A DNA stretch of 33,339 nucleotides from Synechococcus sp. M44_DOE_062 (GTDB lineage: Bacteria; Cyanobacteriota; Cyanobacteriia; Thermostichales; Thermostichaceae), in assembly GCA_015295985.1 (NCBI GenBank), contig DVDX01000034.1, forward strand, positions 1-33,339. The letters run 5' to 3'. Of the stretch, positions 1 to 5,038 are shown piece by piece (the first letter of the stretch is position 1; every line of letters starts with the position of its first letter). Made by a program: the position numbers and the translations under genes. The notes below the pieces were generated by a model. That model made no database searches. It was given only the letters and a program-made list of their open reading frames with translations, and was not told where the DNA came from.

Positions 1-102
1 GGCGTCGGCGTCGGAGTGGGTGTTGGGGTGGGCGTCGGCGTCGGAGTGGGTGTTGGTGTCGGAGTGGGTGTGGGCGTTGGGGTGGGTGTCGGTGTTGGGG
101 TG
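1..102. repeat. Tandem 6-base repeat encoding Thr-Pro
   Basis: A hexanucleotide repeat reads as alternating Thr-Pro on the minus strand, within the DUF4347/CshA gene. The first two 30-base blocks (1-30 and 31-60) are almost identical, so there is also a higher-order 30-base period. It encodes an extended, probably wall-spanning or stalk-like linker. The left boundary is not visible. Confidence 0.85.
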
Positions 103-1859
103 GCGGCGGGAGTGACTGTAATAGTAATGGTTGCTTGGTTGGAAATCAGCCCTCCCGTATCCTTTACTGTATATTTGATTGGAGTGGTAGAGCCTGTGAA
201 GCCCGGCACTGGAGTGAAGGTGACTCCCCAAGTGGTCGAATCGAGGGTATATGTGCCTTCCCCGGCAACTGTCAGAGTGGTTTGCTGTCCAGGAGTGAGC
301 GGGTCTAGGTCGATAGTACTGGGATCCAAGTTAAAGGCATAAGCTGTGTCATTGGACAGCACATTAATGGTGACCGGTGTGTTGGTTGGAGTAGTGGCCG
401 AGTCATCTTTAGCAACGGGGTTGTAAGCAACAATGCCCCCTCCTGCCGTCATGTCCCAGCCGCCGCTACCCTCTGGCGTATTTGTTGGAAACACGCTGGA
501 GTCTTTGAAGTCCTTGATTGAGCCATTCACATCCTTCCCAACTACTGAGTAACCGAAGAACTTTTGATTAGGCTTTATGCCCAGATCCTGATAACTTACG
601 AAAATGCCTGACAACTTCTGGTTATTTGGCTTAGCTGTAATGTTCGTATCCAGAACTTTACTTCCACACTCGTCGTTATGAACATTTGTAAATGGTATTA
701 GCGTTCCCTTCCCCCAAGTAGCACCGGCTGCAATGACAGAGCCATAACCAAATTGTGTGGGGTCTGGATCAAAAGCCGTAATAGCAGCAATCCTAAAAAA
801 GTCGTTTCCTCCTCTATCTAGAAGTAAAAAGCCAATCTTATCAAGGTTTGTAGAAGGAGCAGTTATTCCGCCTGGGGTTATAAAGTCTACCCTCTCAATA
901 TTGTTACTGTTCGTACCGGTATTTGCAAATAGATTATCCGCGCCAGCCTTGATAACTGGGTTTGATGGGTTGATTAAGAGAACCTGCTCCATGGATGTAA
1001 TTCCCAGAGTGCCAGGCTTGTCTGGCGGAATGACCCAGATAACGTTGCATACACCAGATCTATTGGAGTTATTAACTCTCCTCAGAACAACTTGATCGGT
1101 TGCACCGATTAGAGACAGCTTTTGACCACCCACCTCAATGTTTGTCAGTACAGATCCAGCATCTAAGGTGGGAATAGCAGCCGCTTGAAGTGTGTGCTGA
1201 TAGCTGTGATCAATTACTCCTTCAACCACAATCGTAGGGGTAGTAACGCTGCCAGCCGTGGCTTCCAAAACCCAATCTGCTCCGGCTTTGGCATGGCCTG
1301 TGCGGTTTGTAGAAGCAGCAATATCAGCTCCTGTCAGGTGGGCCATTTGCTCTATGAAGAGTCTGCCCTCCGGCTCTGCTGCCACCTCGCAGCCGTAGAT
1401 TAAAATGTCCGCATCATCCGCAAGGCTGGATTTCCAATCTGCCAGTAAGTCCGCGTATTCAGGCAAGTTTTCTCGGCTGAGAATTCTTCCACCCAAGGAG
1501 AGGGAACCTGCTTTCCCGTGAGACAGGATGTGTAGGGCTTTGATGCCTTTCCGTCCTCGCAGTGTCTCTGTGATCTGCTTAATCCCATCTTTATTGGGAT
1601 CCAGAAAAACAACTTCCGTGCCAGGACGAATGCCTGCCAATAAGATTGCCAATTCCGGCAAGGTTTGATCGATAAAAACCAGCTCATCCTGCCTAGGGTG
1701 TTGCAGAGACGCTTCTTTGGATGCAGGGAAGCCAGCCTGCTCTACCCCCAAGAGAACCATCAGCACGGCTGTGGAAACGGCACCCAAGCTGCGACTAAAG
1801 AAGCAAAGCAATCTTTCCGATTGAGCAGGACGAGAGGAAGACAGTTTTGGGGTCAGCAT
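1..1859 (-). CDS. DUF4347 / CshA-repeat surface protein, C-terminus beyond window
   Basis: A continuous minus-strand frame of 619 codons starts at ATG 1859 and is still open at the left edge. A GAGGAG ribosome-binding site lies 6 bases before the ATG. Order of parts: a hydrophobic signal-like segment (about residues 25-45); a DUF4347 domain (about 60-220) with the family-like segments [21 protein letters not shown] and [11 protein letters not shown]; an unrecognised region (about 225-460); then a CshA-type fibril / cadherin-like repeat (about 465-575, with GEGTYTLD and [10 protein letters not shown]). A Thr-Pro repeat follows. DUF4347 proteins in cyanobacteria are usually large, exported and calcium-rich or adhesin-like. 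It is the third gene of a minus-strand set with two lipoproteins. It is visibly more AT-rich than its neighbours and poor in GGGATCCC, which suggests transfer or fast evolution. Substrate or ligand is unknown. Confidence 0.82.
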
Positions 1860-1941
1860 TCAACACTCCTCGGCTCTCTCAGCGCGTTCTCTTGAAGCAC
1901 AAAATCAGCTCACATCAAGCTTGACTAAAACGAGGCAATCA

Positions 1942-2916
1942 TCAATTATCTACCCTCACCGAAACCGTGTTGCTAAAGAGCAACGATCCCGATGCTGAAC
2001 GAACCACGGCCCTGTTGGTAATGATGGTGGGAAGAGCAGGAGCTTCAGGGGTAGGCACCCCTGTGGGCGGAGCAGTTGGAAACTCCACCTGTGGAGTGGG
2101 TCGAGGTGTTGGAAAGTCCGTCGGCGCAGGGGGTAGGGGTACGGGAATGCGGAGGCGGCAGGGCTGATCCGATTGATTGCCTTCTGGGGCATAGCAAACG
2201 CGAATGAGATCCTCCACAAAGCGAAGCTGATTAAAACTAAGTTGATCCGCTTGTCGAATGATGTCCGTAATGATTTCCTCCAGGTCTCGGGCTGTTCTGG
2301 AAAGAGGTACGCTGACAAACAAAATGTTCTCCAGATCCCTAACCTCAGGAGGGGCTAGGTTGGAAAAAGGCACTCTATCCCGCTCCCGCAGCAAGATGCG
2401 ATAAAGGGCTTCGCTCCAAGGGGAAACATCCACAGCAGCACTGAAAGCAAATCCCCGCAGGGGTGTAGGCTGGCCGGACTGACGCCCTTGGCCCAATAGG
2501 TTGGACTGAACCGATACCAATCTCCCTGGCGGCTGAGTGATCGATCCGGAAAAGGGGATGGTGAACCGCAAGTTGCCATCCAAGGCAGTGGTTGACAGGG
2601 CAGGCAACAAAATGTCCCCTCTTGAGCTTAGGTTGAACAACTCAACCTTGTTGCCTCTTGAAAAGAGAGGCCCTCCCAGGCAAAGGGCGGCTGTTGAGCC
2701 TGGCGGGCAAAGCTGAGCAAAGGGATCCACCACCAACCCCAAAATGGCAGAAGCAAAGCCGGAGCCGGGATCCCTTGGCGGCGACCCCACAGTCGAGGGG
2801 CTGCTGGAGGTGCCACCGCAACTTTTCAACAGAGGGGCTAGGCAGCCTGCCAGAGCAGCTAGGGCAAGGGCAGCCCGTTGATAAAACCGTTTGGAGAGTC
2901 TTGGTCGTTGAAGCAT
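1942..2916 (-). CDS. Putative lipoprotein of unknown function, Pro/Thr-rich
   Basis: Predicted 324 residues, family not recognised. The N-terminus is basic, then hydrophobic, and ends in a lipobox LAGC (residues 22-25), so export and lipid anchoring are likely. A Ser/Gly/Pro-rich linker follows. The central region (about 60-240) looks globular and mixes beta-like segments with a helical, acidic stretch. Residues about 245-295 are rich in Pro and Thr (for example PTPRPTPQ), resembling the linker of the next gene downstream. The C-terminus (about 295-324, NTVSVRVDN at the end) is beta-like. It begins 68 bases after the VWA lipoprotein gene and ends 82 bases before the DUF4347 gene, all on the same strand, so the three are probably co-transcribed and act together at the cell surface. 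Confidence 0.7.
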   Translation of the reverse strand: MLQRPRLSKRFYQRAALALAALAGCLAPLLKSCGGTSSSPSTVGSPPRDPGSGFASAILGLVVDPFAQLCPPGSTAALCLGGPLFSRGNKVELFNLSSRGDILLPALSTTALDGNLRFTIPFSGSITQPPGRLVSVQSNLLGQGRQSGQPTPLRGFAFSAAVDVSPWSEALYRILLRERDRVPFSNLAPPEVRDLENILFVSVPLSRTARDLEEIITDIIRQADQLSFNQLRFVEDLIRVCYAPEGNQSDQPCRLRIPVPLPPAPTDFPTPRPTPQVEFPTAPPTGVPTPEAPALPTIITNRAVVRSASGSLLFSNTVSVRVDN

Positions 2917-2984
2917 CTTCTTATCGCCCCGCTTTTTTTAGTCAGTAGGGTGGATATGTGAGGTCAAAAGCGTGCCAAGTTGCT

Positions 2985-4112
2985 CTAGCGGGATCCCACC
3001 GTGAGAACGGCGTCGTTGAAGGGCACTACAAAACGGCTTCCTTCTCTCTCAACCCGCAGCTCGCCGCTGAGAAGATAAGAACCAGCAGGTAGCGGAACAC
3101 TGCTTTGCACCCTCACCTGCAGGCGGTGCTCCCCAATGGCGGCAGGGAACAAATTGGCAAAGGGAGCTTCCAACACTTCAGAAAACCGTGCCAGCACGAA
3201 AGTCCCCTCTGTAGCTGCGGCCAGACTTTGTAACTCCAGAAGATTCAAATCGACCCCTAACCCAACCACATACACGGTGAGCTTTTGTCCCCGCTCCCTG
3301 GCCAGGGCTGTCAGCTCCTGGGTAGCTTGGTTGATGGAACGGGTGCTTTCGTTATCAATACCATCGGTAAACACCACCAAACGGCGGTTGAAACGCTCGT
3401 TGGGCCGAAAATCGCTTAAGAAACGCCCCGCTTCCACCGTGGCATCGTAGAGGGCAGTGTTCCCCCCCGGAACAGCGCGCAAGACGCCTCGTCTTAGTAG
3501 CTCTTTGTCGCCGGTGAAGTCCTGTAGGAGCTGAGCTGTGCGCAGGGGCTGCCCCAAAGCTGTAAGGCCAAAACCTGCCCCCCGGTTGTCAAAGCGCAGA
3601 ATAGCGCCCAAATCCAGAGGTGCAGGGCGAAATTGATCCAAGAGCCGAAAAACAGCCAGGAAGCGCCGAGATTGGGGATCCAAAACCAGCAGGCTGCCTG
3701 AGCCATCCATCAGCACAGCCATGAGCAAAGGCCGCTGAGCCAGATCCGACGGAGGGTTCTCGATCCGAGTGGGCGTTAGGGTCAAGGCTACCGGCTGCGG
3801 GATCCCCAGCAAATCGGTTACTCGGTTGACCTGCAAGCTGACCTGGCTGACGGAGAGCTGGGTTACTGGTTGGGGCGGATCCCCGCCTTGCAAGAGGGCA
3901 AGGTTGAACTCCATTTCCCCTTGCGTACCAGAAAAGGAGCGGGTTAGAGCGCCATTGAACGTCAGGCGAGCTTGGGATCCCACAGCAGACGGATCAATGC
4001 CTGTACCGCCAGAAGAGCCACAGCCGGCAAGGCAGCTTCCCACGAGAACCAGGAGAAACAGCCAACCGGTCTTTCGGTTTTTCACTCGACGAGGCTGCAT
4101 CTTCAGACTCAT
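2985..4112 (-). CDS. VWA-domain lipoprotein
   Basis: Predicted 375 residues. A twin-basic N-terminus and hydrophobic stretch end in a lipobox LAGC (28-31) and a Gly/Ser linker, so it is an exported lipoprotein. A beta-rich domain (about 45-125) precedes a von Willebrand factor A domain (about 129-320). The metal-ion-dependent adhesion site is visible as DGSGS (136-140), and VVFTDGIDNES (about 245-255) supplies the later MIDAS Asp. The last 50 residues are beta-like. VWA domains bind protein partners through a metal ion. First gene of the surface set with the lipoprotein at 1942-2916 and the DUF4347 protein. The ATG at 4112 was chosen; a second Met four codons later is possible. The 251 bases upstream have no gene and must hold the promoters for this set and for the divergent gene at 4364. 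Confidence 0.82.
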   Translation of the reverse strand: MSLKMQPRRVKNRKTGWLFLLVLVGSCLAGCGSSGGTGIDPSAVGSQARLTFNGALTRSFSGTQGEMEFNLALLQGGDPPQPVTQLSVSQVSLQVNRVTDLLGIPQPVALTLTPTRIENPPSDLAQRPLLMAVLMDGSGSLLVLDPQSRRFLAVFRLLDQFRPAPLDLGAILRFDNRGAGFGLTALGQPLRTAQLLQDFTGDKELLRRGVLRAVPGGNTALYDATVEAGRFLSDFRPNERFNRRLVVFTDGIDNESTRSINQATQELTALARERGQKLTVYVVGLGVDLNLLELQSLAAATEGTFVLARFSEVLEAPFANLFPAAIGEHRLQVRVQSSVPLPAGSYLLSGELRVEREGSRFVVPFNDAVLTVGSR

Positions 4113-4363
4113 TTCGGGTGTCGGTGTAAGTGTAGAGAGGGGTAGGAAGATCGGACATTACCACTCAGTAATTCCAAAAGCTACCGTAGCGCTGGGTATA
4201 AAATGTAAAGATCTTTTTACCACTCATGGGGAGCATTCTCGCCGACCAAATGAGGCCAGCGCTCTCTTCCATGACCTACAGTGCATAACAACTAGTGCAT
4301 CACGGCCTGTCAATGGGGGTGTAAGCTCTAAAGGGATCCCCTGGGTGAGGAGGATGGCCGGAT

Positions 4364-5038
4364 ATGGCAGCAAAGCAACTGAAGTTCTACTGGAGCCCTC
4401 AATTCCAGCTCTTTAGCTGCGATGGAGCCAAGCTGGAGGGGCATGGTTTCATTCAAACCAACCCTTCCCACGATCTGGTGCATCTGTTCATTGCCGCCAA
4501 CGGCAACCTGCCCTGGCAGCCGGTGGAAAGCCGCGAGCAAACTTGCTTTGCCGAGTACAACGCGGTGATGCTGGAGCACCTGTTGGTGAACTGTTTTAAC
4601 GCAGGAGCCCTGGGATCCCTGCCCACCCAGCAGATCATTCCAGAGGCGCGGAAATTCTTGCGGTGGTTTGTTTCAGAACACTACGCCCCCTTTCCAGTTT
4701 CTGAAGAAGAGGCTTTTCGCCGCTTTGCCGAGCACCTGGATATTGAGCGCATTGTGCGTTTGTTCCCCTATTTTTACAGTCTGCGGGCTTGGGAATGCTT
4801 CAGCCCCAATTACCGCGCCGAGACCTACGATCTGGAGTTCACCTCCGAGGATGATCCCGTTCGAGAGGCCCCGGAATGGGCGGCGGATCCCAACATTTTG
4901 CAAACCCAAGAACTGGTGAGACAAAAACTGGCTGAAGCGGTGGCCGAGGCAAGATCAGGCTGGCCCAAGCCAGAGCCCGTTTTCTCGCCAACCCCCTCAA
5001 CTTCACCGCCGTTCCATCCCCGAGCCAAGTCTGAATAA
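4364..5038 (+). CDS. Conserved-looking hypothetical protein
   Basis: Predicted 224 residues, family not recognised. The start at 4364 follows a GAGGAGG ribosome-binding sequence with about 10 bases of spacing. The body (about 1-185) is a soluble, mixed alpha/beta-looking domain with many aromatic residues, no signal peptide and no membrane segment. The last 40 residues are low complexity, rich in Pro, Ser and Thr, so probably disordered. It is transcribed away from the VWA lipoprotein and toward tyrS. Two AGTGCAT direct repeats (4280-4286 and 4294-4300) lie about 65 bases upstream and could be a regulator site. Codon usage and the GGGATCCC content match the neighbouring housekeeping genes, so it looks native. 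No function is proposed. Confidence 0.7.
   Translation: MAAKQLKFYWSPQFQLFSCDGAKLEGHGFIQTNPSHDLVHLFIAANGNLPWQPVESREQTCFAEYNAVMLEHLLVNCFNAGALGSLPTQQIIPEARKFLRWFVSEHYAPFPVSEEEAFRRFAEHLDIERIVRLFPYFYSLRAWECFSPNYRAETYDLEFTSEDDPVREAPEWAADPNILQTQELVRQKLAEAVAEARSGWPKPEPVFSPTPSTSPPFHPRAKSE

What the first reader, a model, noticed from the sequence alone, without database searches (positions are those of the whole stretch)
1..4112. Three-gene surface operon: VWA lipoprotein, Pro/Thr lipoprotein, DUF4347/CshA fibril protein
All three are exported, on the same strand, and spaced 68 and 82 bases apart. They combine a MIDAS-type binding domain, lipid anchors and a fibril repeat with a Thr-Pro stalk. This looks like an adhesion or cell-cell contact system, useful in a mat, and I do not recognise it as a described operon.
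Basis: partly seen in the sequence, partly recalled or inferred. Interest (0 to 1): 0.58.

Follow-up and report, generated by a model that had tools for sequence, protein, structure and literature searches.

The report
Surface fibre cassette with caspase-like domain
Three neighbouring genes of a cyanobacterium make two probably membrane-anchored proteins and a long surface-type protein that carries a caspase-like domain; the first two were found only in one cyanobacterial family, always side by side, and the job of the set is not yet known by experiment.

Summary
P1 (VWA lipoprotein, 2985-4112), P2 (Pro-rich lipoprotein, 1942-2916) and P3 (DUF4347/CshA-type protein, from 1859 leftward) lie on the minus strand, 68 and 82 bases apart. 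P3 leaves the window because its contig ends inside the Thr-Pro repeat; its likely C-terminus is at the end of contig C48.

The cassette is real and lineage-restricted. P1 and P2 occur in the same 7 of 388 class genomes, all one family, adjacent and in the same order while the surroundings differ. P3 adjoins them in 5 of 7, is frame-broken in one and missing from one. Selection is purifying (dN/dS 0.12-0.19).

DUF4347 is a caspase-fold domain: the model's best PDB match is Tce1 (Z 13.5), a putative cysteine protease, and the His/Cys pair is intact in 5 of 5 family copies. P3 has a Sec-type signal segment that 29 of 30 sampled DUF4347 loci of other cyanobacteria lack, and ends in an unnamed module that is strictly C-terminal in 30 of 30 loci examined.

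Best reading: a Sec-exported surface fibre with a caspase-like head and two lipoprotein partners. Adhesion is plausible but untested.

The parts
2985..4112 (-). P1: VWA lipoprotein, 375 aa
   Evidence: ORF; VWA weak here, above cut-off in two relatives; lipobox LAGC at residues 28-31; family-restricted
3693..3707 (-). P1 MIDAS motif D-G-S-G-S (residues 136-140); T and D partners in GNTALYDA (from 217) and VVFTDG (from 246)
   Evidence: pattern present in 7 of 7 copies (G003 reads DSSGS)
1942..2916 (-). P2: probable lipoprotein of a family without Pfam name, 324 aa; conserved core, Pro-rich linker, short beta-like C-terminal end
   Evidence: ORF; no Pfam or PHROG match and no NCBIfam match above cut-off; in 7 family genomes of 388, 6 further hits weak and partial
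2818..2820 (-). P2 probable lipidated Cys33
   Evidence: Cys followed by a Gly/Ser-rich stretch in 5 of 5 copies read
3..1859 (-). P3: DUF4347 / CshA-type protein, N-terminal 619 aa; probably continues on contig C48
1704..1859 (-). P3 N-terminal region with Sec-type hydrophobic segment (residues 1-52)
   Evidence: 16-residue Kyte-Doolittle maximum 1.77-2.15 in 5 of 5 family copies; 1 of 30 other cyanobacterial DUF4347 loci reaches 1.7
1188..1682 (-). P3 DUF4347 domain, caspase fold (residues 60-224)
   Evidence: Pfam; model block pLDDT 62-90 over model residues 1-130; PDB matches
1518..1520 (-). His114 of the putative catalytic pair (LSHG)
   Evidence: kept in 19 of 20 and 30 of 31 aligned domains (the sets overlap)
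1389..1391 (-). Cys157 of the putative catalytic pair (YGC)
   Evidence: kept in 20 of 20 and 31 of 31 aligned domains (the sets overlap)
423..1187 (-). P3 middle region (residues 225-479), partly shared with P3-like proteins of some other cyanobacteria
   Evidence: fold unknown, model pLDDT under 45
117..422 (-). P3 CshA / Big_9 repeat (residues 480-581)
3..116 (-). P3 Thr-Pro stalk, cut by the contig end
2917..2984 (.). 68-base gap P1/P2 (one-base overlap in G002, G003 and G007)
1860..1941 (.). 82-base gap P2/P3

Best explanation
A three-gene, probably co-transcribed cassette that builds a surface structure. P1 and P2 are lipoproteins that stay on a membrane; P1 offers a metal-dependent (MIDAS) binding face, and P2 a small core on a Pro-rich tether. 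P3 is exported by the Sec pathway rather than as a signal-less (type I style) protein. It carries a caspase-fold, cysteine-peptidase-like head (DUF4347), a middle region, one to several CshA/Big_9 repeats, a stalk that is rich in Thr-Pro in most copies, and a strictly C-terminal module. I propose that the C-terminal module places or anchors P3 at the outer surface, that P1 and P2 hold or assemble it there, and that the caspase-like head processes the fibre itself or a surface partner, so that contact is regulated by proteolysis. SHOWN: gene order, family restriction, co-occurrence, purifying selection, domain make-up, caspase fold (by model and by relation to a solved structure), intact His/Cys and MIDAS residues. 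INFERRED: co-transcription, Sec export, lipidation, peptidase activity, P1/P2/P3 contact, surface location, adhesion.
For: Co-occurrence of P1 (E up to 1e-10) and P2 in the same 7 of 388 genomes. Adjacency kept in differing surroundings: TyrRS side (G000, G001, G004), clpC-clpP-clpR-like side (G002, G003), and G006 and G007, whose neighbours matched none of the other loci compared (G007's contig covers one side only). P3 adjacent in G000, G002, G003, G006, G007. One-base P1/P2 overlap in G002, G003, G007. dN/dS where dS is under 1: P1 0.118 (G000/G001), 0.121 (G000/G004), 0.167 (G001/G004); P2 0.173 (G000/G001); P3 N-part 0.180 (G002/G003); P3 C-part 0.193 (G000/G001). Caspase fold: best VIA-align match 9qpe_G Z 13.5, 3.2 A over 153 residues; SAVED-CHAT 8tl0 Z 10.1; a caspase-3 chain Z 8.0; TcdB protease domain Z 7.2. 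Foldseek's first rows are CED-3 and legumain. Profile match to 9qpe_G, E 0.0014, through HG and YGC. PA0256 = Tce1 is described as a DUF4347 protein (PMC8262886, one passage) and as a putative cysteine protease whose His/Cys align with the pair of TcdB (PMC13323088, passages and section 10). His/Cys 43 residues apart in 5 of 5 family copies. Signal-segment contrast. C-terminal module ends 0-3 residues before the stop in 30 of 30 loci, 22 of them not rows of the profile.
Against: P3 is broken in G001 and absent in G004, while P1 and P2 frames remain open in G001, so P1/P2 either work without P3 or the decay is recent. G005 of the same genus lacks P1 and has at most a marginal P2-like match. G003 has frame changes in P1, P2 and P3, and G006 a run of N with a frame change in P3, so only G000, G002 and G007 look intact, G000 and G007 with P3 split over contigs. 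The structural model rests on 3 sequences and is confident only over DUF4347 (mean pLDDT 43.1). Foldseek found no match at E under 0.001 and lists unrelated folds (for example a short-chain dehydrogenase-like entry, BdcA, E 0.0071) among the caspases; the tool warns that Z under 8 can mean only a common arrangement, so the case leans on 9qpe_G and CHAT. Profile comparison with metacaspases was weak (probability 0.9 on hhalign's percent scale, E 0.06). The cited paper saw no yeast growth effect of Tce1; the active-site-dependent effect was for Tce2. P3-like proteins of 3 other cyanobacteria stand without P1/P2. No data on transcription, location, binding or protease activity.
Confidence: 0.5

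Rival explanations
1. Plain adhesion system: P3 is a fibrillar adhesin, P1 a MIDAS adhesin, P2 a structural lipoprotein; DUF4347 is a dead caspase fold used only as a binding or packing domain.
For: CshA-type repeat and Thr-Pro stalk; MIDAS in 7 of 7 P1 copies. A VWA surface lipoprotein adhesin exists in a Gram-negative bacterium (CglB of Myxococcus; PMC12288465, passages and a reference title seen).
Against: The His/Cys pair is near-invariant in two overlapping sets of aligned DUF4347 domains (His 19 of 20 and 30 of 31, Cys 20 of 20 and 31 of 31), which is not expected of a dead enzyme; one member of each set lacks the His.
Confidence: 0.3
2. Envelope control system: P1 and P2 are lipoproteins that sense or bind a cell-wall or divalent-metal signal and control a P3 protease; the fibre repeats are only a spacer through the wall.
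For: P1 and P2 outlast P3 in G001; lipobox-like cysteines; Pro-rich spacers could span peptidoglycan (inference from sequence).
Against: Repeat region, long stalk and a C-terminal module shared with large cyanobacterial proteins point outward.
Confidence: 0.15
3. No functional unit: three exported genes stay neighbours by descent in a small family.
For: Only one family, 7 genomes, and some decay.
Against: The block keeps its order while its surroundings differ, with one-base gene overlap in 3 of 7 genomes and the two restricted genes found in identical genomes.
Confidence: 0.05

Closest known systems
Tce1 (PA0256) of Pseudomonas aeruginosa, PDB 9qpe chain G, labelled DUF4347 domain-containing protein
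   Same: DUF4347 relation by profile (E 0.0014), same fold (Z 13.5), His/Cys at matching motifs HG and YGC
   Different: Tce1 is a 310-residue cargo effector of a type VI secretion system (PMC13323088); P3 is a larger Sec-type protein with repeats, stalk and C-terminal module in a cyanobacterium
CshA fibrillar adhesin (PF19076, TIGR04225)
   Same: CshA-type repeat: one in the window (above Pfam's cut-off, below NCBIfam's), three in G002 (103.9 bits, cut-off 60)
   Different: No LPxTG-type end in the C-terminus read; N-terminal domain is a caspase fold; host is a cyanobacterium
DUF4347 proteins of other cyanobacteria
   Same: DUF4347 in 116 of 194 class genomes; some share the middle region
   Different: 29 of 30 sampled loci have no strong hydrophobic segment before the domain; the 3 P3-like loci inspected show no P1 or P2 homologue within the 12-16 kb read and no C-terminal module
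CglB, VWA surface lipoprotein adhesin of Myxococcus xanthus
   Same: VWA domain plus lipoprotein, cell-surface adhesin (PMC12288465, passages)
   Different: Homology was not tested, and no gliding machinery was looked for here
Metacaspases / orthocaspases (PF00656)
   Same: Same overall caspase fold
   Different: No PF00656 match in P3 at E up to 1; weak profile comparison; PF00656 proteins are separate genes here, found in 29 of 30 genomes searched including this one

Membership tests
Clan CD (caspase-fold) cysteine peptidases | caspase-type alpha/beta fold | tested here: met
   AlphaFold2 model of the domain; 9qpe_G Z 13.5, CHAT Z 10.1, caspases about Z 7-8
Clan CD (caspase-fold) cysteine peptidases | His and Cys catalytic pair after two core strands | tested here: met
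   LSHG and YGC, 43 residues apart in 5 of 5 family copies; near-invariant in two overlapping sets
Clan CD (caspase-fold) cysteine peptidases | proteolytic activity | not testable with these tools
   needs biochemistry
Peptidase family C14 (metacaspase/orthocaspase) | sequence match to PF00656 | tested here: not met
   no PF00656 match at E up to 1; hhalign probability 0.9 on a percent scale
CshA-type fibrillar adhesins | CshA repeats | tested here: met
   PF19076 43.2 bits in the window (cut-off 27); TIGR04225 50.9 in the window, below its cut-off of 60, and 103.9 in G002
CshA-type fibrillar adhesins | LPxTG wall anchor (recalled as part of the family) | tested here: not met
   C-terminal piece on contig C48 read to the stop, none seen
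RTX / type I secreted adhesins | calcium-binding nonapeptide repeats and no Sec signal | tested here: not met
   no RTX repeat family in Pfam scans of three P3 copies (window, G002, G003); signal segment present; the stretch missing between C5 and C48 could not be scanned
VWA (MIDAS) proteins | VWA domain with complete MIDAS | tested here: met
   PF00092 above cut-off in relatives G002 and G007; window copy below cut-off; MIDAS pattern 7 of 7
Bacterial lipoproteins | signal segment plus lipobox cysteine | tested here: inconclusive
   pattern only: P1 6 of 7 copies (the seventh read without its N-terminus), P2 5 of 5 read but atypical box; no signal-peptide predictor was available

The most novel reading that the evidence does not exclude
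A lineage-specific surface proteolysis system: a Sec-exported fibre with an active caspase-like head, held by a MIDAS lipoprotein and a new lipoprotein family, and delivered or anchored by an unnamed strictly C-terminal module that many cyanobacteria use on large proteins. It would extend caspase-fold biology in cyanobacteria from orthocaspases to the cell surface.
Probability: 0.3. Interest if true: 0.68.

Novelty: new variant of a known kind. Interest (0 to 1): 0.5.

Why it matters
DUF4347 is still a domain of unknown function in Pfam and appears in 116 of 194 cyanobacterial-class genomes searched, often in long open frames. A caspase fold with a near-invariant His/Cys pair gives a testable activity to this large, little-studied set. 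The cassette is a compact place to test it: a Sec-exported version beside two dedicated lipoprotein genes, with natural loss in sister genomes as controls. The strictly C-terminal module is a candidate targeting or anchoring signal for cyanobacterial surface proteins.

Tried and rejected
Structure of P2: AlphaFold2 on two sequences failed (mean pLDDT 32.6), so nothing is claimed about its fold. The P3 middle region was not modelled with confidence either. Relatives of DUF4347 in viral contigs for a deeper alignment: one 20-residue match and one useful locus, L123. The idea that P2's last strands complete P3's C-terminal domain by strand donation rests only on the look of the sequences; not tested, not claimed. 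Filing DUF4347 under metacaspases: rejected. P1's hits outside the family (13 of 39 genomes, E 4.4e-7 to 9.2e-4, 18.6-30 bits against 380-806 in the family) were read as general VWA similarity; at E 1e-10 only the one family remains. The 6 non-family P2 hits (E 4.9e-5 to 6.9e-4) and the marginal G005 and G023 hits were not counted as P2. PHROGs gave only weak hits to P1.

Literature, open-licence library only. DUF4347: 4 papers, listing seen, none on cyanobacterial function by title; one passage read in PMC8262886. Synechococcus + hot spring + von Willebrand + microbial mat: 0 papers. Searches listed 5 of 5, 8 of 12, 10 of 277, 8 of 83 and 8 of 26 papers; no listed title or abstract start describes this cassette, but most of the longer lists were not seen. 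PMC4477158 holds none of six searched terms.

In one search the rows come from Foldseek's top 1000 chains, so families not listed are not excluded. A search of the window's DUF4347 domain alone against PDB sequences found nothing.

Full report
OBSERVATION. The window is the first 33,339 bases of contig 5 of a 90-contig genome. Pfam finds DUF4347, CshA repeat and Big_9 in P3 above cut-offs, only sub-threshold VWA in P1 and nothing in P2. P1 of two relatives passes the VWA cut-off, and the MIDAS pattern is complete in 7 of 7 copies. Lipobox-like cysteines were judged by pattern only. A consensus scan gave 1 promoter-like and 3 terminator-like sites in 1700-4500, as many as in shuffles; none on the minus strand lies in the two gaps.

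THE MISSING END OF P3. The contig ends inside the Thr-Pro repeat. A search of the same genome with the C-terminal piece from G001 finds one match, at the end of contig C48. That contig also ends in Thr-Pro repeat, and the next gene downstream (family F08) is the one that follows the cassette in G001 and G004. The simplest reading is one gene split by the assembly; the pieces were not joined here.

DISTRIBUTION. In a set of 39 genomes (own included), strong P1 and P2 matches are confined to one family, f1. In a class-wide sample of 388 genomes, P2 is found in 7 f1 genomes, with 6 weak partial matches elsewhere; P1 at E up to 1e-10 is found in exactly the same 7. The one order-level relative, G008, shows neither. 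G005, in the same genus, has no P1 match and only a marginal P2-like one (E 7.3e-4). P3 lies next to P1/P2 in G000, G002, G003, G006 and G007 (G006 has a run of N and a frame change, and G007's copy runs into a contig end). In G001 the two ends of P3 are present but in different frames, with the middle missing. In G004 P1 is truncated, P2 is a fragment and no P3 was found. In G003, P1, P2 and P3 carry frame changes that may be real or assembly errors.

LINKAGE. The block keeps its order while its surroundings differ: beside tyrosyl-tRNA synthetase and a 224-236-aa gene in G000, G001 and G004; beside clpC, clpP and clpR-like genes in G002 and G003; and in G006 and G007 with neighbours that matched none of the other loci compared (clp names come from reading the sequences, recalled, not from a family search; G007's contig shows one side only). 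P1 and P2 overlap by one base in G002, G003 and G007. Selection is purifying: in pairs with dS under 1, dN/dS is 0.118, 0.121 and 0.167 for P1, 0.173 for P2, 0.180 for the P3 N-part and 0.193 for the P3 C-part. All other pairs had dS above 1.8 or not computable.

DUF4347 IS A CASPASE FOLD. A first hint was a sub-threshold Peptidase_C80 match in G003's P3 (E 0.17). In 20 aligned domains His114 is kept in 19 and Cys157 in 20; in a second, overlapping set of 30 loci plus the window, 30 of 31 and 31 of 31. A search with the window domain alone found no PDB sequence, but a profile of 15 domains finds 9qpe_G, named DUF4347 domain-containing protein, at E 0.0014, aligned through HG and YGC; the only other row up to E 10 was a pilin at E 0.86. 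That entry is the Hcp3-Tce1 complex. The paper calls Tce1 a putative cysteine protease and aligns its His186/Cys240 with the catalytic pair of a known protease domain (PMC13323088, passages and section 10). It also reports no measurable effect of Tce1 on yeast growth; the effect that depended on the predicted active site was for Tce2. So activity of a DUF4347 member has not been shown there. An AlphaFold2 model of P3 residues 55-480 from three sequences is good only over DUF4347 (block pLDDT 62-90 for model residues 1-130; mean 43.1). Its best VIA-align matches are 9qpe_G (Z 13.5), SAVED-CHAT (Z 10.1), then caspase, legumain and Craspase chains at about Z 7-8. Foldseek's best E was 0.0018 (CED-3), with some unrelated folds among its first 50 rows. 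A profile comparison with metacaspases was weak, although it paired His with His and Cys with Cys, so P3 is not filed as a metacaspase.

WHAT IS UNUSUAL ABOUT P3. DUF4347 is common: 116 of 194 class genomes. Among the 30 loci returned by that search, which favours the best-scoring ones, 1 has a hydrophobic 16-residue stretch of 2.0 or more between the first possible start and the domain; the next highest value is 1.48. Family-f1 copies read 1.77, 1.91, 2.11, 2.11 and 2.15 (one of the 30 loci, L132, is cut at its N-terminal side). Three P3-like genes outside the family (in G011, G012, G031) have no P1 or P2 homologue in the 12-16 kb read and no C-terminal module. P3 therefore looks like a DUF4347/CshA protein re-equipped for Sec export; export itself was not tested.

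THE C-TERMINAL MODULE. About 150 residues; the G001 piece has no Pfam match at E up to 1 and no NCBIfam match at E up to 0.1; the G006 piece has a sub-threshold DUF11 match (E 0.11). A profile of 8 rows (A6) finds it in 77 of 194 class genomes at E up to 1e-6. In the 30 loci returned, the best match ends 0-3 residues before the stop in 30 of 30 (0 in 26, 2-3 in 4), typically in a strand such as YGFIRFRVRVN. Eight of the 30 are rows of the profile, which were chosen from C-terminal examples; the other 22 of 22 also end there. Lower-scoring matches were not examined, and some proteins show a second, weaker match elsewhere in the same frame. A strictly terminal, conserved domain suggests a targeting, anchoring or capping role; that is inference.

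MECHANISM. I favour a surface structure in which P1 and P2 are lipid-anchored helpers and P3 is an exported fibre with a caspase-like head. Whether the head cuts P3 itself, a partner or nothing is open. Loss of P3 in two same-genus genomes argues for an accessory trait.

VERDICT. It is a new variant built from known kinds of parts in a lineage-specific arrangement, not a categorically new system on present evidence.

Noticed in passing
L072 (end of G000 contig C48) and loci L154-L183: A domain of about 150 aa without Pfam name closes cyanobacterial proteins within 0-3 residues of the stop codon in 30 of 30 loci examined, in 77 of 194 genomes; candidate sorting or anchoring module.
   Followed up: partly
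whole window: GGGATCCC occurs 43 times against 1.43 expected from shuffles, while GCGATCGC, recalled as the usual cyanobacterial HIP1 octamer, occurs 0 times against 0.50 expected; looks like a lineage-specific highly iterated palindrome.
   Followed up: no
L064:7230-7965 (G001) and L067:8200-9600 (G004): Decay of the cassette in two same-genus genomes: P3 lost its middle and its frame in G001; in G004 P1 is truncated, P2 a fragment and P3 not found.
   Followed up: partly
P1 and P2, window against G001 and G004: Synonymous divergence from G001 differs between the two neighbours (dS 0.721 for P1, 0.286 for P2), while P1 is close to G004 (dS 0.294); may reflect recombination within the cassette.
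   Followed up: no
L123:540-4706: A contig of the viral collection carries three tail-collar-like genes in a row (by eye, recalled resemblance) followed by a DUF4347 protein with repeats.
   Followed up: no
window 4364-5038: A divergently transcribed 224-aa gene without Pfam match sits next to the cassette in G000, G001 and G004.
   Followed up: no
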